A stretch of 64,000 bases of DNA from Fuscovulum ytuae (GTDB lineage: Bacteria > Pseudomonadota > Alphaproteobacteria > Rhodobacterales > Rhodobacteraceae). Each line of letters opens with the position of its first letter. The first letter of the stretch is position 1. The notes under the pieces are model-generated. The model ran no database searches and was not told where the DNA came from. It saw nothing but the letters and a program-made list of their open reading frames with translations. A program made the translations under genes and the position numbers. Shown here one piece after another: positions 4,382 to 14,781 of this stretch. The stretch spans positions 2,959,001 to 3,023,000 of the forward strand of contig NZ_CP124535.1 of NCBI RefSeq assembly GCF_029953595.1, in the 5' to 3' direction.

Positions 4382-5512
4382 TCAGTACGCGTTGCGCTTG
4401 GCCAATACAGCCTGATCAAGCGGCAGGGAAGGGAGCACGGCTCCAAGGCGTTCGATAGTTCTGCCATCACCATAGAGGTTTTCAAACGGGCCTTTCATCG
4501 CAAGCGTACGCCGAAGGGCCTGACTGATGGCCGGTATGTTGAATTCCGCGCAATCCACGACATTCCCGTTGCGCAGGCGGCCATTCTGCCGGGAACCAAG
4601 GTTAAGGCAAGGGGTGCCCAAGGACGCGCTTTCAATGATGCCCGAGGAACTGTTGCCGACAAGCGCATCGGCCTGCGCCAAGGCGGCGAGATAGGATTCA
4701 CGATTGAAATGGTCGATCACCGTCAGCCAACCTTCAGCCTGCATCCTGTCGAGATAGGCGTTGATCGAGGCCCCGCCGGCATCGGAGTTCGGGCGCAGCA
4801 CCAGGGCCGCACAGCCTTCGTTGTTTAGCGTCTCTAGCAGGGTTTCGATTTGCTGCGCAGCGGATGCGGCCTCTTGCACCACAGGATGAAAGACGACGAG
4901 CGCGCGATGGTATTGACCAGGACGCAAGGGCAGGGTTCGGGCCAGCCATCCGTCATCGTGCCTGATGCCATCGGCAAGGCCGACAAGCCCTGGCGCGCCA
5001 ACGACCCAGATGTGTTCGGGCCTTTCACCCATCCGGCGAAGGCGTTCAGCAGACTCTTCGTTCGCAGCAAAATGGAAATGCGCCAATTTCGAAATCGCAT
5101 GGCGAAAACTTTCGTCGAGGGTGCCAGAGAGTTCACCACCGTGGAGATGGCCGACGGGGATGCCAAGATGGACAGCAGCCAAGGTGGCGGCCAACATTTC
5201 CCCGCGATCGCCCAACACCAAGACGAGATCAGGTCTATCCTTCGACCAAAGGTCCAAAAAACCCACAAGTTCAGTGGCAAGCGCCCGGCCCATCTCTGCC
5301 CCGTCAGCCCCTGAAAGGGCGACCGGTATCTGACCCGCCAAGGGTAAGCCGGAGGCAAGGATATCCTTGATCGTGTTGCCATAGGTTGGCAGCAGATGTT
5401 GACCCGTTACCACGACATAAATCTGCAGTTCTGGCAGACCAGACAGTCCTATCAGCGTTTTCTCCATCAAGCCGAAATCGGCACGGCTGCCCGATACGTA
5501 GTGAATAAGCAT
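4382..5512 (-). CDS. neuC: UDP-N-acetylglucosamine 2-epimerase (hydrolysing), NeuC/LegG type
   Basis: Hydrolyses and epimerises a UDP-HexNAc to a free ManNAc-type sugar, the substrate for the NeuB reaction. The 376-residue protein has the GT-B fold hallmarks of the family: GSRADFG at the N terminus, LVLGDRGEM near residue 100, HLHGGE followed by GTLDESFRHAISK near 125-140, and VGNSSSGIIE near 290, a UDP-binding loop. Proteins of this family act on UDP-GlcNAc (NeuC) or on 2,4-diacetamido sugars (LegG), and this sequence alone does not separate them. Its start lies close to a divergent flippase gene, so a shared promoter region (roughly 5513-5610) is likely. Confidence 0.92.
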   Translation of the reverse strand: MLIHYVSGSRADFGLMEKTLIGLSGLPELQIYVVVTGQHLLPTYGNTIKDILASGLPLAGQIPVALSGADGAEMGRALATELVGFLDLWSKDRPDLVLVLGDRGEMLAATLAAVHLGIPVGHLHGGELSGTLDESFRHAISKLAHFHFAANEESAERLRRMGERPEHIWVVGAPGLVGLADGIRHDDGWLARTLPLRPGQYHRALVVFHPVVQEAASAAQQIETLLETLNNEGCAALVLRPNSDAGGASINAYLDRMQAEGWLTVIDHFNRESYLAALAQADALVGNSSSGIIESASLGTPCLNLGSRQNGRLRNGNVVDCAEFNIPAISQALRRTLAMKGPFENLYGDGRTIERLGAVLPSLPLDQAVLAKRNAY

Positions 5513-5610
5513 GTGTGAACCACGAAATAACGGGTTTCGCGCTTGCGCGCTTTGGGTTGGAGTTTACAAGGGACTGGATGCCCAAGGTAGGGGTTGGTGG
5601 CGGTGCTTTG

Positions 5611-7119
5611 ATGAAATCGGTTCTTTTTGCCTCGGCTCTGGTCAGTTTTGTCCTTCTGCTCGGCCGTCTGTCCGGTTTTGTGCGCGAAACACTACTTGCG
5701 GCGAGCTTTGGCCCGACAGCGATGGCGGATGCAGCAATCGTGCTGCTGACTTTGCCGGATCTTATGGTGGGCTTGCTGTTGGCGGGCGGTTTCAATGCTG
5801 TCCTGATCCCGGCGATCAAGCAAGCCGAAGGCGATGCGCGGATTGCGCTGGTCCATCGTACAGCATTGTTAATCGGTCTTGGTTTTCTGGTGCTGGCTGG
5901 TGTGCTTGCGTCGGTTCCGCAATTCGCGATGGGCCTGTTGGCGCCCACCTTGGAAGAGGGGACATTGCCGCAACTGGACCTTGCCTTCCGGCTGAGCCTG
6001 ATTGCTTTGCCCATCGTGGGGGTGATCGGCGTGGCAGCGGCCTATTTGAATTCGATCGGGCGGTTTGCTGTGCCAAGCCTTTCGGTTCTTCTCTTCAACG
6101 TAACGCTTTGCTTTTATCTTCTGGGGCAACATCGGCCTGCCCATGGGCTCGTGGGATTTGCCTTGGCCATCCTTCTGGCGTCAATGCTGCGGTTCGGACT
6201 GCATCTGGCATTCATGGGGCCCGTCTTGCGCATGTCGCGTTTCAAGGCCCAAGCGCACGTGATCACGCCTTTGAGATTCGATTTTGCGAAACGGTTTTTC
6301 CTTGGGGTTTTGGGCCTTGGCATCACGGTCGCAGCACCCGTGGTTTTTCGCACGCTTTCTGCGGCGACTGGTGAAGGCAATCTCGCCCTTTTTAGTTTTG
6401 CGCTGAAGCTTTTTGAATTGCCTTCCGCAATCTTGATTGCACCGGTTGTGATAGTGATGATCCCGAAACTTGCTGCCATGACCGCCGCAGCGCAGGCATC
6501 GCAGTTTGAAGATGCGCTTCTGACTGCCATCCATGCGGGGGTGGCACTGGCGCTTTCTGCGGCCTGCGTTGCATACGTCTTTGCCCTACCCGTTGCGCAA
6601 TCCGTCTATGGCTATGGTGCGATGGGCGAGGCGGACGTGGAACAGGTTGCTCAGGTGACTGCCATTCTGATGCTGGGCCTGCCGGGACTGTGCGTGGTTC
6701 AGCTGGGCGCGGCGGCATTGAGTGCAAAGGGGCGGGTTGATCTGGTGGCGATTTGGGCGATCATGCTTTTGTGTCTATGTGGTATAGGGGCCTTTGTCGT
6801 ACAGCGCTGGTCGGCTTCCAACTACCTTGCCTTAGCTGCAATTGGTCTTTCGACCTACAATTCCATGCTGGCAGTCACCTATCTTTCTTGTCTGTTCGGA
6901 TGGCGCATACCTTCAGCCCTGCGGCTTTGGACGCTGATTTGGCTGATCGTGCGATGTGGGGGCGTGATCATTCCATTCGGCTTGATCCTGACTTATCTCG
7001 GCGACCGGATCGGGCATTGGGGAGGTGTCGGCTTGGCCTTGGTTGCAGGTGTTGTGCTACTGGTCGTCAATCTTGGGCCATTGCGGGCCTTAAGGCGGTT
7101 GCAGATCGATAGCGAATGA
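5611..7119 (+). CDS. MurJ/MviN-like lipid-linked oligosaccharide flippase
   Basis: Integral membrane protein of the MOP superfamily with about 13-14 hydrophobic segments across roughly 500 residues. The N terminus (KSVLFASALVSF, then GRLSGFVRETLLAASFG) matches the MurJ signature of TM1 with a conserved Arg. MurJ flips lipid II, but a copy inside a nonulosonate cluster more likely exports a polysaccharide or glycolipid intermediate. Start choice is open: ATG 5611 gives the MurJ-like N terminus. ATG 5578 (preceded by AAGGGA) and GTG 5515 are in frame upstream, but 5515 would leave almost no promoter between it and the divergent neuC homologue. Confidence 0.85.
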   Translation: MKSVLFASALVSFVLLLGRLSGFVRETLLAASFGPTAMADAAIVLLTLPDLMVGLLLAGGFNAVLIPAIKQAEGDARIALVHRTALLIGLGFLVLAGVLASVPQFAMGLLAPTLEEGTLPQLDLAFRLSLIALPIVGVIGVAAAYLNSIGRFAVPSLSVLLFNVTLCFYLLGQHRPAHGLVGFALAILLASMLRFGLHLAFMGPVLRMSRFKAQAHVITPLRFDFAKRFFLGVLGLGITVAAPVVFRTLSAATGEGNLALFSFALKLFELPSAILIAPVVIVMIPKLAAMTAAAQASQFEDALLTAIHAGVALALSAACVAYVFALPVAQSVYGYGAMGEADVEQVAQVTAILMLGLPGLCVVQLGAAALSAKGRVDLVAIWAIMLLCLCGIGAFVVQRWSASNYLALAAIGLSTYNSMLAVTYLSCLFGWRIPSALRLWTLIWLIVRCGGVIIPFGLILTYLGDRIGHWGGVGLALVAGVVLLVVNLGPLRALRRLQIDSE

Positions 7120-7208
7120 TGCGTTTCACCTTGCATGGGGAAACACTGGTAGAGCGGCGCCAGAATGCCAGAGATGGAATATCGACGTTTCGAAGGGTGG
7201 TAGAATAA

Positions 7209-7910
7209 ATGATCAGGTTTTGTTCCATCTGCGCGAGAGGCGGGTCCAAAGGAGTGCCGGGGAAAAACATCCGGGACCTGCATGGTCAGCCACTGATCGC
7301 GTATTCCATCGCACAGGCAAGGAAAAGCGGCCTCTTTGATCTTATTTATGTCAGCAGCGATGATGAGGATATTCTATCCGTCGCGGCGCGGTTTGGAGCG
7401 GATGAGGTGATCCGTCGCCCGGATGAATTGGCAAATGACCACGCCCCGAAAATACCTGCAATCCGACATGCGATGATCGAGGCTGAAGGCCGGTTTGGAA
7501 GGGAGTGTGACATTGTTGTCGACCTTGATGCGACATCTCCGTTGAGGTCCGTTGATGATATCGTTGCATCGGTGAACAGTCTTGTTGTGTCGGGGGCGTC
7601 CAACTTGTTTTCCGTGACACCGTCTCGAAAATCACCCTATTTCAACATGGTCGAATTAGGTGAAGGCGGGGTGCCCCACCTTTCCAAGACACTCGGCCAG
7701 CAGGTTGTGCGGCGACAGGATTCCCCGAAATGCTTTGACATAAACGGGTCAGTCTATGTTTGGACGCGCAAGGCTCTTCTGGAAAACGACCTGCTTTTTC
7801 TGGAAAACACCCAAGTGCATGTGATGCCGGAAGAGCGATCTGTCGACATCGACACGCAGCTTGATTTCCTGATTGTCGAACGGCTTATGTCGCTTCCTCA
7901 GGCGGGGTGA
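7209..7910 (+). CDS. neuA: Acylneuraminate cytidylyltransferase family protein (CMP-nonulosonate synthetase)
   Basis: Activates a nonulosonic acid with CTP to the CMP-sugar used by transferases. The 233-residue protein shows the cytidylyltransferase P-loop ICARGGSKGVPGKNI at residues 6-20, then ATSPLRS near 108, RRQDSPKCFDINGSVYVWT near 165 and the metal-binding SVDIDTQLDF near 215. It is preceded by a purine-rich site (GAAGGGTGG). The last 26 bases overlap the 3' end of the convergent membrane-protein gene, which is unusual and ties the two genes' evolution together. With the neuB and neuC homologues it completes the core CMP-nonulosonate route. No recognisable sialyltransferase is in this window. 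Confidence 0.94.
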   Translation: MIRFCSICARGGSKGVPGKNIRDLHGQPLIAYSIAQARKSGLFDLIYVSSDDEDILSVAARFGADEVIRRPDELANDHAPKIPAIRHAMIEAEGRFGRECDIVVDLDATSPLRSVDDIVASVNSLVVSGASNLFSVTPSRKSPYFNMVELGEGGVPHLSKTLGQQVVRRQDSPKCFDINGSVYVWTRKALLENDLLFLENTQVHVMPEERSVDIDTQLDFLIVERLMSLPQAG

Positions 7911-8934
7911 ACAGCCTGTAGTCGGAGGCAGGCCATAGACGGCGATCTGGCACGCGAGAGATCAGCAAAGCCGAGGCCACAACCAGCACTGGCAGCGCCG
8001 CCAAGGACAGAGTTGAAAATCCAAAGGCCCCGCAAACCATCGCGGCGAGCAGGATATGCAACATGAATGACTGTCGGAGACGATAAAGGAGCATTGCGAA
8101 AAGCACGGCCATTGCTAAGGCCAAGGCCACAACGGTCGGCAACCCAACGGCACTCAGCGCTGGATAAATCGAACGCCCAGCACCATGTTCAAGCATGCGC
8201 AAAAACCCATCGCCACCGCCGCCATAAAAAGCGATGTTCTTGTTTATCCCAACTAGGAAGAAACGGAAAAATAGCACACCCAGCACGAGGCAGGACAGTA
8301 AGGCAAACAGTGCCGTCCTGGTCAGCGAGACACGCTGGAAGGACCGGATAACTTCAAAATACAGCGCAATGACAAGGCAAAGCACCGCAGAAATCAGCGT
8401 ACCGCTACTGACCGAACTAAGGCCCAAACCCACCAGCGCCGAAACGGCGGAGAAAGCGTCAAAGCGTCGCTGATAGTAGTGGCGCGCCACAATCAGAAGA
8501 AGGATGGAATAGCCAAGGAAGGCAAATCCGATCCTGCCATTCATCAGGTAGAAAAGGATCACGACAATTGCAGCACAGCCTATTTGCACAAGGTAAGAGA
8601 CGTGATCGGTATTTGCGGTGATCGCGACGGTCCGAACTAGGTTTCTGACCGTGAAAAAGCAGAGGCCCACAAGTATATAGGAAAACAGCGTATCGTGATG
8701 CCATCCCATGAACTCCGCCGTCACAAGGACAAGGTAGAGCAGCATATATCGCAAGGAATGGGGGTTAATCTGCGCAAGTTCGACTAGGGGATTTGCGTCC
8801 GCTTCCCACATGTAGGTTATTTGGGACCAGATTTCGAAGGTCTTGAGTCCCAGCATCACGGAAAGCAGGAGCGGAAGTATTGCCGCGACGACCAATAGGG
8901 TCGAAATTCGGATATCCGGCAGTGCGAAAGTCAT
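7885..8934 (-). CDS. Polytopic membrane protein, Wzy/EpsG-like polymerase candidate
   Basis: About 349 residues with roughly nine to ten hydrophobic segments and a large periplasmic-type loop (WSQITYMWEADANPLVELAQ) after the first segment. Position and architecture fit an EpsG/Wzy-like O-antigen or exopolysaccharide polymerase. Such proteins have almost no conserved motifs, so the function is inferred from context only. The ATG at 8934 is chosen because AGGGG lies about nine bases upstream; a TTG at 8952 is also in frame. The stop lies inside the neuA 3' end (convergent overlap). The base composition is more AT-rich than the housekeeping genes of the window, as in the rest of 0-9 kb. Confidence 0.6.
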   Translation of the reverse strand: MTFALPDIRISTLLVVAAILPLLLSVMLGLKTFEIWSQITYMWEADANPLVELAQINPHSLRYMLLYLVLVTAEFMGWHHDTLFSYILVGLCFFTVRNLVRTVAITANTDHVSYLVQIGCAAIVVILFYLMNGRIGFAFLGYSILLLIVARHYYQRRFDAFSAVSALVGLGLSSVSSGTLISAVLCLVIALYFEVIRSFQRVSLTRTALFALLSCLVLGVLFFRFFLVGINKNIAFYGGGGDGFLRMLEHGAGRSIYPALSAVGLPTVVALALAMAVLFAMLLYRLRQSFMLHILLAAMVCGAFGFSTLSLAALPVLVVASALLISRVPDRRLWPASDYRLFTPPEEAT

Positions 8935-9076
8935 AACTTTAGCCCCTGTCAACCAAGGCTGCGTCTAGAACACACGCATGTAAGGGCGATCTGAACCTAG
9001 GCATCACTCTTGCCCCACTTTCCTTTCAACCCGGCCATTATGGCATCGGCTATGCGGTTTGTCGCGCTTTGCCGCT

Positions 9077-9083
9077 CTTGCTT
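9077..9083. repeat. Target-site duplication, left copy (CTTGCTT)
   Basis: Direct 7-bp repeat with 10569-10575. Both copies abut the TGT outer ends of the nested element. Collapsing them restores the frame of the interrupted glycosyltransferase gene. Confidence 0.85.
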
Positions 9084-9121
9084 TGTCAATCGGCGTGCAA
9101 AACTGACCCCTTATCGGCGCC

Positions 9122-9196
9122 CAATTTTGATGAGGTGGACGGCCCCTGACCCAACCGTGGCGCGCTTTGCCGCCGCGGTTCATGATCAGGGTTCCA
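9122..9196. repeat. Left copy of perfect 75-bp inverted repeat
   Basis: Identical to the reverse complement of 10480-10554 over all 75 bases, from CAATTTTGATGAGG to CAGGGTTCCA. Identity stops abruptly on both sides. The segment TGGACGGCCCCTGA inside it (9136-9149) recurs as a direct repeat at 9201-9214, just inside the boundary. Confidence 0.95.
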
Positions 9197-9441
9197 TGTC
9201 TGGACGGCCCCTGATGCGCAAGCTGGAAATTTGACGAGCCTATGCCGAAAGCAGTCATGTCTACGGCCTGTTGGTGCGATAGAGCCGCTGGCCCAGATGA
9301 AGTCCGCAGATCAGATCCCAATCAAAATTACGCGTTCGATTTGACGCCTTGACCCCCTGGGGTGTTCTGATCCCCGGTTCGACCGGTTTGTCATCTTTCC
9401 TCAGTCTCGACGCATTCAGTTTTGTCTGTCTCGCACCTCCG
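9197..9441 (-). other. Non-coding 3' end of the IS110 unit; candidate guide-RNA (bridge/seek RNA) region
   Basis: About 245 bp between the transposase stop and the left 75-bp repeat, without a convincing gene. In the IS1111 group of the IS110 family the long non-coding end downstream of the transposase is known to encode the guide RNA that specifies the target. This stretch has the right place and size. No secondary structure was computed. Confidence 0.4.
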
Positions 9442-10461
9442 TCAGGCGGATCGAGCTACGAATACTTCGTTTCTTCGCAAAATTGCCCAAGCGATGCGCG
9501 CGGTTTTATTCGCCTGAGCGACCGCAGCGACCTTGGGCCGCTTACGCTCCTTTATCCCCGCCAGCCATGCTTTGCCGGGATCGCCCTGACGCGTGAAGCG
9601 CATTACGGCACTCGCACCTGAGACGAGCAGTCGGCGGATATAGGCATCGCCCTGTTTGCTGATGCCCATCTGCCTCTCCTTACCGCCGCTGGAATTGGCC
9701 CTCGGCGTCAGCCCCAGCCACGCCGCGAACTGTCTGGCAGTCTTGAAGAGGCTCGCATCTGGCACATTGGCCGCGATGGCGCTGGCTATGATCGGGCCAA
9801 CGCCCGGGATAGTAGCAAGCCGATGGCTGGCATCGTTGGTTCGGTGCCAATCCAAGATACGGCTCTCAAGCCTTTCGATCTCTTCGACAAGCCCATCTGC
9901 CATTCGGAGCAAGGCTTGAAGAGCCCCTACGGCATGTCCCGGCAGCGATCCGATCACCCGATGGAAGTGCGCCTTTAAGCTGCTCAGCCCGTCGACGCCT
10001 TGGGCTGCAACGATGCCCAATTCCGCGAGATGGGCCCTGAGTGCATTGGTCTGCATCGTCCTCTGCCTGACAAGAAGTTCCCGCGTTTTGTGCAACATCA
10101 GTACCGCTTGTTGTTCCTCGCTCTTCACCGCCACAAATCGCATGGTCGGTCGCGTCACGGCCTCGCAAATGGCTTCTGCATCCGAGGCGTCGGTCTTCCC
10201 CCGTTTGACGTATGGCTTGACGTAAGCCAGAGGCATCAGCTTCACCTCGTGACCGAGCCCCGCAATCTCGCGCACCCAGAAATGCGACGATGCGCAAGCC
10301 TCCATCCTGACAAGACATGGTGATAGTTCGCCAAAGAATGCCAGAACCTCGGCACGCCGCAGCTTGCGGCGAACACAAACTCTACCGTCAGCATCGACGC
10401 CGTGGACCTGAAACACATTCTTCGCAAGGTCGAGCCCGACCGTCACGATCACATCAGACAT
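9442..10461 (-). CDS. IS110-family transposase (IS1111-like)
   Basis: A 339-residue DEDD transposase. The N-terminal RuvC-like domain shows VGLDLAKNVFQVHG (first Asp), RMEACASSHFW (Glu) and KRGKTDASDAEAI (Asp pair). The C-terminal Tnp_20 domain shows IPGVGPIIASAI and the Ser-containing ANSSGGKERQMGISKQG. A Shine-Dalgarno-like AGGGAGG precedes the ATG. Length and motifs are complete, so the enzyme could be active. IS110-family elements move through a circular intermediate guided by a structured RNA and usually lack ordinary terminal repeats, which makes the long perfect repeats around this gene unusual. Confidence 0.95.
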   Translation of the reverse strand: MSDVIVTVGLDLAKNVFQVHGVDADGRVCVRRKLRRAEVLAFFGELSPCLVRMEACASSHFWVREIAGLGHEVKLMPLAYVKPYVKRGKTDASDAEAICEAVTRPTMRFVAVKSEEQQAVLMLHKTRELLVRQRTMQTNALRAHLAELGIVAAQGVDGLSSLKAHFHRVIGSLPGHAVGALQALLRMADGLVEEIERLESRILDWHRTNDASHRLATIPGVGPIIASAIAANVPDASLFKTARQFAAWLGLTPRANSSGGKERQMGISKQGDAYIRRLLVSGASAVMRFTRQGDPGKAWLAGIKERKRPKVAAVAQANKTARIAWAILRRNEVFVARSA

Positions 10462-10479
10462 GGTGGAACCTCCCTAAAT

Positions 10480-10554
10480 TGGAACCCTGATCATGAACCG
10501 CGGCGGCAAAGCGCGCCACGGTTGGGTCAGGGGCCGTCCACCTCATCAAAATTG
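10480..10554. repeat. Right copy of perfect 75-bp inverted repeat
   Basis: Reverse complement of 9122-9196 without mismatch. It begins 19 bp upstream of the IS110 transposase start codon and ends 14 bp before the outer end of the nested element. Confidence 0.95.
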
Positions 10555-10568
10555 CACGCCGAAACACA

Positions 10569-10575
10569 CTTGCTT
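10569..10575. repeat. Target-site duplication, right copy (CTTGCTT)
   Basis: Partner of 9077-9083. In the disrupted gene, read on the minus strand, these bases encode Lys-Gln plus the first base of the next codon. Confidence 0.85.
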
Positions 10576-11220
10576 CGTGCCGCTGTCTTTTCTTCGCCTC
10601 AGCCCATCGATCATACCCGTGACCGCTGTGCCACGCCGTGAGAAATCGGCAACCGGGATCGCCATTCCATAGTCGCCATAGGGCGCGTCTTTGGCGAAGA
10701 CTGATCCTTCGACACTGATCAGCGGAACACCAACCAGATAGTCCTGAAGACCAACGGTGGAGCAGGTAACCACCACTAGATCGACAGCATGAATCACCAT
10801 GTTTACGTCATCGGCTCGCGGACTTGCCGAGATACGGTCGGCTGTGAGGATGGATTGATCCTCACTTGGATGGCGGCGGATCACAAGTTCCAGCCGTGGA
10901 TCGGCCTGCACGGCACGGCGTAACTCCTCTTCGACCCGGCAAGGCTATTCTGGGTTGGCGGGTTCGCCTGTGAACGGATGCCGCTCGGGTTCGGGTATAC
11001 TGGCCGAGAGGATGACAACACGATCCTGTTCGCCCCGTCCGCGTTCTGCGCGAAGGCGACGTCCCGCATCGATAAGAGCCGGGTCAAGTAGAGTATCGAA
11101 GGCCGGATTGCCAGTAATCGTCACCTCATCAGAGGAACGACCATTCTGGATCATCCTTTGGCGTACGATTTCATCCAGCACGAAAAGATGATGGCCAAAA
11201 TCGGGACGGGACAGGCTGTT

Positions 11221-11264
11221 GATTTCCATCCTGAACTGACCCGGCTCAGTTCCTAACGGAAATC
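11221..11264. repeat. Imperfect hairpin at a rearrangement junction
   Basis: Outer arms GATTTCC and GGAAATC enclose inner arms TGAACTGA and TCAGTTC around CCCGGC. It sits exactly where homology of the broken glycosyltransferase C-terminal half ends and before the GC-rich cassette, so it marks a probable recombination junction. It could also terminate the minus-strand cassette operon, but there is no clear T-run. Confidence 0.6.
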
Positions 11265-11376
11265 AACACTCGAAGGTCTTGAGCCCGCCGAGATGCAGGC
11301 CGTTGAACAGCGCCAGGACGAGCACCGGCATGAAATGGTGTCGGGACAGCTTCAGCGGCAGGCCTTTTGCTTGCAT
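11263..11376 (-). pseudogene. 37-residue hydrophobic reading frame, probable truncated gene
   Basis: Starts ATG at 11376, 14 nt after the stop of the upstream gene, and ends at a TGA inside the hairpin arm at 11263. The peptide begins MQAKGLPLKLSRHHF and continues with a hydrophobic stretch (MPVLVLALFNG), like the start of a membrane protein. The short length and its end at the rearrangement junction suggest it is the 5' stump of a further gene of the GC-rich cassette. No family recognised. Confidence 0.4.
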
Positions 11377-12737: not shown

Positions 12738-13531
12738 GAACGGGCCTCTAGGTCGCGGAAGGTGCGGGAATGGTCCGAGGAGAAGGGCGCGAAGTCAGGC
12801 TTGTGCAGCACCTCGGGCCCCTCAAGGACCAGGAACCATTCGTAGAAGGGCGCATCGAGCGTGGTCGAATGGTGAAATGCGGCGAAATCACCTCGCCGGG
12901 CGAAACCGTAGGTGGCCACCTCGCGGCAGCCGGCACCGGCCAGCGCTGCGCGCATCGCCGGGACATCGGTGAAATAGTTCGGATGGCCCTTGCCGCGCGC
13001 GCCCTTCTCGGCGGCCAGCGCCAGGGCGTCATCGGCGGCGTAGCGGTCGTTCTTGCCGGTAAGGTAAAGCCGTCCGCCGGGCCGGAGCACGCGCAGGAAT
13101 TCGGCCGCCGCCAAGTGCTGGTAGGTGGCGTCGAAGACCGCAATGCAGACGAGGTTGTCAAAGCTGGCATCGGCAAAGGGCAGCGTCTCGGCGGTGGCCA
13201 CTTCCAGCGTCTCGATGCCCTCGCGCCCGGCATGGCCCTCGCGCGCGGCCTCGATCATCGCCTGAGATATGTCCACGCCCGACACTGCCAGCCCGTGATC
13301 GCGGTAGATCGGGAACATCCGCCCCCAGGCACAGCCCACATCCAGAACCCGACCCGGCCGGAAGGGATGCGCCGCAAAGACCCGCTCATAGACCCAGTCG
13401 CCCTCGGTGCGCGCATCGCCCTTCTGAACCTGCGATTCCGCCCCGGCCCCGGCTTCGGCCACACGTTCCTGCCAGTATTTGCGGTAGGTCTCGTTCCAGT
13501 AGGCGGCGCGGGGGTCTTCGATCCCGGTCAT
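12734..13531 (-). CDS. Class I SAM-dependent methyltransferase
   Basis: A 265-residue Rossmann-fold methyltransferase. Motif I is RVLDVGCAWGRMFPIY at about residues 60-75, followed by VSGVDISQAMIE (acidic SAM-ribose contact), TAETLPFADASFDNLVC (motif II) and LRVLRPGGRLYLTGKND (motif III). The start overlaps the end of the glycosyltransferase gene and the stop overlaps the next start (ATGA), so the three are coupled. In this setting it most likely O- or N-methylates a sugar or sugar acid of the surface glycan. The exact target is unknown. Confidence 0.85.
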   Translation of the reverse strand: MTGIEDPRAAYWNETYRKYWQERVAEAGAGAESQVQKGDARTEGDWVYERVFAAHPFRPGRVLDVGCAWGRMFPIYRDHGLAVSGVDISQAMIEAAREGHAGREGIETLEVATAETLPFADASFDNLVCIAVFDATYQHLAAAEFLRVLRPGGRLYLTGKNDRYAADDALALAAEKGARGKGHPNYFTDVPAMRAALAGAGCREVATYGFARRGDFAAFHHSTTLDAPFYEWFLVLEGPEVLHKPDFAPFSSDHSRTFRDLEARS

Positions 13532-14781
13532 TTTGGCTCTCCGTCGGTCTGATTGGGTAAAACTTTATCGGCATGCCGTGAAAGGATGTCGTCCACATAG
13601 GCCAGGACATTGGAGGTAGCGTCACCCAGCGGGGGCATATCGAATTCCGGGGCCGCATCCGCCTGACCCGCCCGCAGTATCCCCATGGCCTCGTCCATGT
13701 CCGACGCGGCCTGCCCGAGGCCGAACCCCGGATAGAGCAGATAATCGGCAAAGCCAACACAGATCACCGGCTTTCCGGTCAGCGCCGCCTGCAATCCCAT
13801 GGTGCTGGCCTCGACGCAGACGATGTCCGATACCAGAATCGCGTCCTCGGGGCCGAGCAGGCCGCCATCGTCCAGCATGCCGTGCCGGACGCCCTCGGGC
13901 AGGGCCATCGGCCGGTTGGGATGCTGCCGGATCAGGTAGGCGTGACGCGGATCGGCGCGGCAGAAATCCTCCAGGGCCGCGACCACGTCGGCCAGTTCGA
14001 GGAAGGGTCGGCCGATCATCGACATCTGCGCGCCGGGGGCAGGAAAGAGGATCACGGTCCTGTCCGCCAGTCCCAGCCGCGCCCGCAGGGCCGCGCGCCG
14101 TGCGGCATCCCCGGAGCCGGGGGCAAGGCGGTCGAACGCCGGGTTGCCGGTGACGCGGATGCCGCTTTCGGGGAAACCGTCGGCCACGAGCGCGCGCGCC
14201 ACCTCGCCCGACAGCACGGCCAGATGCGGCGCATAGCCCTCCTGAAGGATCCAGGCGCGGTCCTTGACCAGAAAGAGATCGCCCACTGCGAGGCCGGGGA
14301 TGCCCTCCAGCCGCGCGGCCTTTTGCAGGGCGCATTCGAAGCGCGGGCTGGTGGTGGTGATGACTATGTCGGGCCGGGTCCGGCGCAAGTGGCGGCGCAT
14401 CACGCCGACCGGCTCGAACGCGGTGCGGCCGGTCTCGCGCACCCGCGCCAGCGCCGCCTCGCGGCCCAGATCGTGCGCCAAGTCGCGCAGGCCGAGGGCG
14501 AAATAGGCGCAGGTTTCCTCGGGGGGAATGTCGGGATGCGTGGCCGCGCCGGTAAATTCCTCCGCCAGCGCCAGCCATTCGGCATCTTCCGCCGGGTCGA
14601 GCAGCGCCGAGACCGGCTGCGCCGCGATGCCCTGGCGGCGCAGTTCGGCATGCGCGGTGGTAAAGCCGATGACCTCGGGTGAGTCGCCGCGCGCCGCAAG
14701 GGCCCGCACCAGCGCCGCGACGATCTGCACATGGCCGCCGCCATAGCTGGCCAAGAGGGGGCGGAGGATGCGTGCGGTCAC
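13528..14781 (-). CDS. Glycosyltransferase-like protein (GT-B fold, capsule-synthesis type)
   Basis: A 417-residue protein starting with GTG that overlaps the sulfotransferase stop. The N-terminal half has a glycine-rich loop (ASYGGGHVQIVAAL, residues 12-25) as in GT-B enzymes such as MurG. The C-terminal half has VTGNPAFDRL near 220, LIRQHPNRP near 290 and CVEASTMGLQAAL near 330 with GKPVICVG, like UDP-sugar-binding domains. Broken relatives lie at 8997-11229 and 17092-17250, so this is the surviving member of a duplicated family. A role as a transferase of the CMP- or UDP-sugars made here is plausible but unproven. Visibly more GC-rich than the broken copies. Confidence 0.65.
   Translation of the reverse strand: MTARILRPLLASYGGGHVQIVAALVRALAARGDSPEVIGFTTAHAELRRQGIAAQPVSALLDPAEDAEWLALAEEFTGAATHPDIPPEETCAYFALGLRDLAHDLGREAALARVRETGRTAFEPVGVMRRHLRRTRPDIVITTTSPRFECALQKAARLEGIPGLAVGDLFLVKDRAWILQEGYAPHLAVLSGEVARALVADGFPESGIRVTGNPAFDRLAPGSGDAARRAALRARLGLADRTVILFPAPGAQMSMIGRPFLELADVVAALEDFCRADPRHAYLIRQHPNRPMALPEGVRHGMLDDGGLLGPEDAILVSDIVCVEASTMGLQAALTGKPVICVGFADYLLYPGFGLGQAASDMDEAMGILRAGQADAAPEFDMPPLGDATSNVLAYVDDILSRHADKVLPNQTDGEPK

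What the first reader, a model, noticed from the sequence alone, without database searches (positions are those of the whole stretch)
9122..10554. IS110-type gene sits between perfect 75-bp inverted repeats
IS110-family elements normally have no long terminal inverted repeats. Here the transposase unit is bounded by two flawless 75-bp inverted copies that end abruptly at 9196/9197 and 10479/10480. Either the IS110 element entered the centre of a 150-bp palindromic MITE, a site type some IS1111-group elements favour, or the repeats were captured to make a new mobile unit. Lack of any mismatch implies it is recent or actively maintained.
Basis: partly seen in the sequence, partly recalled or inferred. 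Interest (0 to 1): 0.7.

Follow-up and report, generated by a model that had tools for sequence, protein, structure and literature searches.

The report
RNA-guided IS110 repeatedly self-rearranged
A jumping gene that seems to use an RNA guide to land in the ends of other jumping genes has its tail joined to a back-to-front copy of its own head, and relatives in other bacteria carry the same joint, which suggests that its enzyme sometimes acts on a look-alike site in its own DNA.

Summary
The perfect 75-bp inverted repeats are real, but they are not a palindrome around an IS110. The right arm lies inside the IS110: it is the element's own transposase-side end (LE). The left arm is a second, inverted LE fragment fused precisely to the element's other end (RE). 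Both LEs abut the two different ends of an IS21-family element whose genes are gone; a 7-bp direct repeat flanks the whole. The element is IS1111-type; its non-coding RE carries two stretches matching the IS21 end (AATTTTG / ACCCCC), and a relative sits in exactly such an end. The same RE-TG-inverted-LE joint occurs in 10 elements, plus one truncated, including sphingomonad, Azospirillum and Komagataeibacter elements, always at a TG in the transposase leader. Transposase trees need 6 and 7 changes. Close copies without the arm exist. Best reading: two copies entered both ends of one IS21, then the recombinase joined one copy's RE to a cryptic target in the other's leader, deleting what lay between. 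One relative looks like the one-copy inversion product. The leader's likeness to the guides is fair in three clades and weak in this window's clade, so the catalysis is inferred.

The parts
9077..9083 (.). left copy of the 7-bp direct repeat CTTGCTT
   Evidence: read; equals 10569-10575
9084..9129 (+). left (L) end of an IS21-family element, TGTCAATCGG...CAATTTTG; istAB lost
   Evidence: 98% to G191:C74 over 9083-9130; there the intact element has IstB (PF01695) and an IstA-like ORF with rve; in the 15 listed plasmid records other than Pseudosulfitobacter the match stops at this boundary
9122..9196 (+). left arm of the perfect inverted repeat
9130..9194 (+). LE fragment (65 nt) of a second IS110 copy 'a', rest absent
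   Evidence: 65 of 65 identical to LE of copy b
9195..9196 (-). core TG of the RE / inverted-leader joint
9197..10546 (-). complete IS110 (IS1111-group) copy 'b', 1350 bp
   Evidence: ends set by the same rule in 90 of 126 hits
9201..9214 (.). subterminal inverted repeat, RE copy
   Evidence: read; partner 10527-10540
9197..9441 (-). non-coding RE region, predicted bridge RNA / seekRNA
   Evidence: aligned among 18 elements, window included; Rfam found nothing
9350..9358 (-). right-target guide AGGGGGTCA (complement of TGACCCCCT)
9322..9330 (-). left-target guide TAATTTTGA
9442..10461 (-). IS110-family transposase, 339 aa
   Evidence: Pfam PF02371 and PF01548
10462..10546 (-). LE and leader of copy b
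10480..10481 (+). antisense TG in the leader of b, the position at which the joint lies in copy 'a'
10480..10554 (-). right arm of the perfect inverted repeat
10527..10540 (.). subterminal inverted repeat, LE copy
   Evidence: read
10547..10568 (-). right (R) end of the IS21-family element, TGTGTTTCGGCGTGCAATTTTG
   Evidence: same letters as the R end in L123
10569..10575 (.). right copy of direct repeat CTTGCTT
   Evidence: read

Best explanation
This is an IS1111-group IS110 element whose RNA guides fit the terminal repeats of IS21-family elements. Two copies entered the two ends of one IS21, in inverted orientation with LE outward. The recombinase then recombined the RE of copy b with a cryptic, antisense target-like site in the transposase leader of copy a. 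Because both sites then point the same way, the IS21 genes and most of copy a were deleted, leaving IS21 end / LE of a / RE-to-LE of b / IS21 end. The long inverted repeat is the two LEs. Shown by sequence: element ends, IS21 ends, guide matches, exact joint, recurrence. Inferred: order of events, and that the element's own recombinase made the joint.
For: Ends: LE ATGNNG-TGGA and RE TCCA+4 nt set in 90 of 126 transposase hits (a few are the same element fetched twice); the 2-nt core agrees on both sides in 77 of 90. Target: relative L041 has LE flank CCAATTT-TG and RE flank TG-ACCCCC, an IS21-type end split exactly. Guides TAATTTTGA / AGGGGGTCA match it; in Komagataeibacter CAGAGGTGA / ACGGGACCA match the IS3-family end TGAGG-TG-GTCCCG beside L149; L161, L162, L163 fit as well. 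The window has both IS21 ends, different in sequence. Same joint RE-TG-inverted leader in 10 elements, window, L006, L119, L048, L051, L152, L157, L158, L160, L169, and in L172, cut upstream. Trees: 6 changes, 7 changes, 6 forced by well-supported branches in each. Direct repeats outside the unit in 4 of the 9 two-LE cases, read by eye (window 7, L152 4, L157 4, L160 3 bp). L051 has the joint and no LE before its transposase, as one-copy inversion would give. IS621 recombinase excises between same-strand sites and inverts between opposite-strand sites (passages of PMC11208160).
Against: Likeness of the leader site to the own left guide, rank among TG sites of the element: Komagataeibacter L048 5/6, 3 of 191; Azospirillum L160 5/6, 2 of 164; sphingomonads 4/6, 7 of 190, 9 of 183, 12 of 170; L006 3/6, 17 of 177; but window 2/6, 83 of 182 and L119 2/6, 63 of 182; with the right guide added: window 14 of 182, L119 23 of 182, L152 20 of 190, L158 51 of 170. 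Across 61 relatives the leader-target likeness is not above shuffles (5 of 61 at p<=0.05). In L048 the flank of the extra LE runs into IS256-family transposase DNA, not into an evident end of the same host IS. No direct repeat seen at L006, L119, L048, L158, L169. No precursor with two full copies and no deleted circle was found. The upstream joint of L051 shows no clean core (AGCC where CACG is expected). Right guides fit the actual right flanks of several sphingomonad copies poorly. The window RNA alone does not fold better than shuffles (z -0.80).
Confidence: 0.6

Rival explanations
1. A third copy is involved: an IS110 circle inserted antisense into the leader of copy a, giving the RE joint by ordinary insertion; homologous recombination with another copy in the far host-IS end then deleted the rest.
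For: The RE-TG-leader joint is exactly what insertion at the leader site would give; no new reaction needed.
Against: Needs two events each time; in all 9 two-LE cases copy b's LE has a target-like flank (AATTT/AAAAT/GAGA/GACG/GAGG before TG), never the leader remainder.
Confidence: 0.17
2. An old two-LE element with long true inverted repeats, kept identical by gene conversion or inversion and moved by the host-IS transposase.
For: Window, L006 and L119 share the architecture at about 82% identity, with the IS21 ends swapped relative to the transposase in L006 and L119; their arms vary together.
Against: Close copies lack the arm (L149, L150 beside L048; L147, L148 beside L157; L133 beside L158); the arm lies outside the IS110 and should not travel with it; only the Rhodobacterales-type cases show IS21 ends.
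Confidence: 0.1
3. One reading: insertion into the centre of an existing 150-bp palindromic MITE.
For: L143 (G712) does show an IS110 relative inside an imperfect palindrome of about 34 nt a side (by eye).
Against: In the window the right arm is the element's own LE with its subterminal repeat; no empty palindrome found in the 390 genomes and viral contigs searched.
Confidence: 0.03
4. Replication template switching or other repair made an inverted duplication of LE.
For: Short inverted repeats at both ends could prime it (inference).
Against: The two LE copies have different outer flanks, here the two distinct IS21 ends; the joint is at a TG in 10 elements.
Confidence: 0.05

Closest known systems
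IS4321 / IS5075 (IS1111 family) in terminal repeats of Tn21-family transposons (Partridge and Hall 2003; seen only as a reference title in PMC11208160)
   Same: IS1111-group element with subterminal repeats that targets terminal inverted repeats of another mobile element
   Different: Hosts here are an IS21-family and, in Komagataeibacter, an IS3-family IS; plus a precise RE-to-inverted-LE joint
IS621 bridge RNA system (PMC11208160, passages)
   Same: RNA-guided DEDD recombinase, dinucleotide core; insertion, excision and inversion reported
   Different: IS621 is IS110-group with its RNA in LE; here the RNA region is in RE, and a natural self-rearrangement is inferred
seekRNA of IS1111 elements (PMC11187229, abstract and passages)
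   Same: non-coding region downstream of tnp; top-strand complement precedes bottom-strand match, the order seen here
   Different: no long inverted repeats or self-joint in the passages seen
Piv invertase (named in passages of both papers)
   Same: related recombinase that inverts DNA
   Different: Piv inverts pilin-gene DNA; here the inverted part would be the element itself (L051)

Membership tests
IS110 family, IS1111 group | DEDD / Transposase_20 transposase | tested here: met
   PF02371 94.5 bits, PF01548 58.5 bits
IS110 family, IS1111 group | subterminal inverted repeats of 7-17 bp (range from PMC11208160) | tested here: met
   14-nt repeat 9201-9214 / 10527-10540; 11-17 nt pairs in 61 of 80 relatives
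IS110 family, IS1111 group | long non-coding RE, short LE | tested here: met
   245-nt RE, 85-nt LE
IS110 family, IS1111 group | GL-P----S(T)G motif (PMC11187229) | tested here: met
   GLTPRANSSG in the translation
IS110 family, IS1111 group | RNA that guides target choice | tested here: inconclusive
   guide stretches match real targets in several relatives, some right guides poorly; expression and function not testable here; single-sequence fold not above shuffles
IS21 family (host remnant) | terminal sequences shared with an istA/istB element | tested here: met
   L and R ends match L123, which has PF01695 IstB and an ORF with rve
IS21 family (host remnant) | istA and istB present | tested here: not met
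   only the IS110 lies between the ends
palindromic MITE with IS110 in its centre | both arms lie outside the IS110 | tested here: not met
   right arm is the IS110 LE

The most novel reading that the evidence does not exclude
In one clade of IS1111 elements the transposase leader holds a built-in antisense target, so that the RNA-guided recombinase acts on itself: between two copies it deletes the host IS, within one copy it inverts the transposase away from its LE. This would be a programmed self-rearrangement that limits or resets the element, not an accident.
Probability: 0.25. Interest if true: 0.78.

Novelty: new variant of a known kind. Interest (0 to 1): 0.6.

Why it matters
Bridge recombinases are being developed as genome editors. 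Natural evidence that one repeatedly recombines its own end with a cryptic site in its own leader would show self-target chemistry outside the laboratory and hint at which mismatches are tolerated. It also adds ends of IS21-family and IS3-family elements to the landing sites of IS1111 elements, and suggests how such elements can erase the ISs they colonise.

Tried and rejected
Palindrome-centre insertion: rejected, see above. Captured repeats as true ends of a mobile unit: not needed; near copies occur without the arm. A family-wide leader self-target: tested on 61 relatives, not significant. Rfam: 0 matches at E<=1. Viral contigs: 6 relatives; none of them reached the inverted-repeat score of 30 in the scan. 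That scan held 127 transposase hits in 123 loci and gave 7 rows with score 30 or more, two of them the same place (L010, L119) and one the palindrome case L143; it could not see L051, which has no upstream LE and was found by eye. A first end-finding script failed and a second used a wrong motif; one search replaced them, dropping 36 of 126 hits whose ends were not found. An unconstrained rank test put the window's leader site among the best 3 of 2670 positions, but in a register with core GG, so I do not use it. In one search two elements (L006, L158) were not scored because their arms are imperfect; one search replaced it. The combined p values (0.0007 to 0.014) are post hoc and two of the three sets hold such unscored elements; I do not rely on them. 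Komagataeibacter rhaeticus pENS3 shows only 15 nt of arm before the record's end and was not counted. The choice of plasmid hits was steered partly by BLAST coverage past RE, so the share of arm-bearing elements is not an unbiased rate. On the second tree three rows (L045, L046, L151) were left out of the count of 7 changes; the figure of 6 forced changes treats them as armless. Papers: seven searches; no title or abstract start in the listings describes this joint, but three of the listings were capped (15 of 87, 15 of 24 and 15 of 6,163 papers). Only PMC11208160 and PMC11187229 were opened, by passages.

Full report
What is there. The window holds perfect inverted arms at 9122-9196 and 10480-10554 around an intact IS110-family transposase ORF (9442-10461, minus strand). 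The 75-mer occurs nowhere else in the genome, and a search with the whole unit found only itself and its arms. A second IS110-type transposase domain lies on C2; it was not found by the DNA search.

Where the IS110 really ends. In 61 of the 80 there is an 11-17 nt inverted repeat, TGGACGGCCCC-like, roughly 70-95 nt before the transposase match and 245-330 nt after it; one of the 80 (L048) showed a long pair. Ends could be set by rule in 90 of 126 transposase hits, the window included: LE begins ATGNNG-TGGA, RE ends TCCA plus four bases, and the dinucleotide next to both ends agrees in 77 of 90, mostly TG. For the window this gives an element of 1350 bp, 9197-10546. The right arm is therefore the element's own LE, apart from 8 outer bases. 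The left arm is a 65-nt piece of a second LE, inverted, joined to RE through the core TG.

The host element. The bases outside both LEs are the two ends of an IS21-family element: L end TGTCAATCGG...CAATTTTG (9084-9129) and R end (10547-10568). An intact element with IstB, an IstA-like ORF and the same ends is in G191. In the 15 listed plasmid records other than Pseudosulfitobacter that match the L end, the match stops at the IS110 boundary (63 more records not listed). A 7-bp direct repeat, CTTGCTT, lies outside both ends (read). No istA/istB is left inside. The own genome has two IstB-domain hits, but one search found no second copy of these IS21 ends.

Targeting. The region 3' of the transposase is highly similar between the window and L006 and was aligned among 18 elements. 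Two short stretches vary with the target: TAATTTTGA and AGGGGGTCA in the window, matching AATTT-TG and TG-ACCCCC of the IS21 end. Relative L041 sits in precisely such an end. In Komagataeibacter the stretches CAGAGGTGA and ACGGGACCA match the far end of an IS3-family element, TGAGG-TG-GTCCCG, whose near end adjoins the IS110 L149, with a possible 3-bp repeat ATC. L161, L162 and L163 fit too. For several sphingomonad copies the right guide fits the actual right flank poorly. The order of the two stretches is the one reported for IS1111 seekRNAs (PMC11187229, passages). This is evidence by sequence only; the window RNA alone does not fold better than shuffles, and Rfam has no match. That the hosts of the sphingomonad and Azospirillum units are IS3-like is an inference from their flank letters (TGACG, TGAGG) and short direct repeats.

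Recurrence. The same joint, RE-TG-inverted leader-LE, is in Pseudosulfitobacter (L006; 30 plasmid records align across it), G328 (L119), Komagataeibacter oboediens (L048), Blastomonas (L152), Novosphingobium (L157), Sphingomonas naphthae (L158), Azospirillum brasilense (L160), Azospirillum sp. B510 (L169) and Sphingomonas yabuuchiae (L051), and, cut upstream, in L172. With the window that is 10 elements plus one. In the 9 that also have a normal LE, the two LEs differ at 0-2 of 55-67 positions, while elements differ from each other much more. By eye no two share surroundings beyond the host-IS ends. On the first tree (102 transposases, 8 arm rows; L051 was still labelled armless and L169 not yet fetched) all arm rows fall in one supported set of 31 and need 6 changes. 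On the second (37 rows, 10 arm rows) 7 changes are needed, 6 forced by well-supported branches. Since the extra LE lies outside the IS110 and should not travel with it, most cases are probably separate events. The sampling was partly steered by BLAST coverage, so no rate is claimed.

Orientation. In L006 and L119 the IS21 L end is next to the transposase side; in the window it is next to the extra LE. Either the retained copy differs, or the inner part was inverted through the arms. L051 lacks LE before its transposase and carries it inverted behind RE, as a one-copy inversion would give, though its upstream joint is not a clean core.

Mechanism. Two copies in both host ends, then recombination of RE(b) with the leader site of copy a, explains the two different host ends, the TG at the joint, the lost host genes and the direct repeats seen in 4 of 9 two-LE cases. 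Two copies in direct orientation would instead give an inversion with the same joint, which may suit L048, where the extra LE runs into IS256-family DNA rather than an evident host end. The likeness of the leader site to the own guides supports the model in three clades and hardly in the window's own clade (window 83 of 182, L119 63 of 182, L006 17 of 177), and is not a family rule. I therefore hold the recombinase-made deletion as most likely (0.6) but not shown.

Comparison. IS1111 elements that land in transposon ends are known (Partridge and Hall 2003, seen as a reference title), and bridge recombinases can excise and invert (PMC11208160, passages). A recurrent, exact self-joint of this kind is not described in any title or abstract start listed by seven searches, three of them capped, in an open-access library that lacks most subscription papers.

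Noticed in passing
   Followed up: partly
L151/L154 (Komagataeibacter rhaeticus pENS3) and L170/L171 (p9b3): Both plasmid records begin or end inside this IS110; in pENS3 the break comes after 15 nt of inverted leader, perhaps an assembly effect of inverted repeats.
   Followed up: partly
L043, 1-138: The LE is missing; sequence that looks like the end of an IS5-type transposase (by eye, recalled) abuts the leader, while RE has an ACCCCC flank.
   Followed up: no
L044, 4571-4581: A short inverted LE-like motif about 300 nt beyond RE, without the joint.
   Followed up: no
window 4382-8952: Neighbouring ORFs look like surface-sugar genes (epimerase-like, flippase-like, cytidylyltransferase-like), by eye from the translations, no search.
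   Followed up: no
window 10546-11268: Short ORFs right of the element resemble pieces of the 417-aa ORF at 13528-14781 (by eye), with an imperfect 52-nt palindrome at 11217-11268.
   Followed up: no
L007, L008, L009 (Phaeobacter, Salipiger plasmids): Fragments of a related IS110 lie between TniQ/TniB genes and a conserved ORF; the match starts at about the RE end (window 9188-9191).
   Followed up: no
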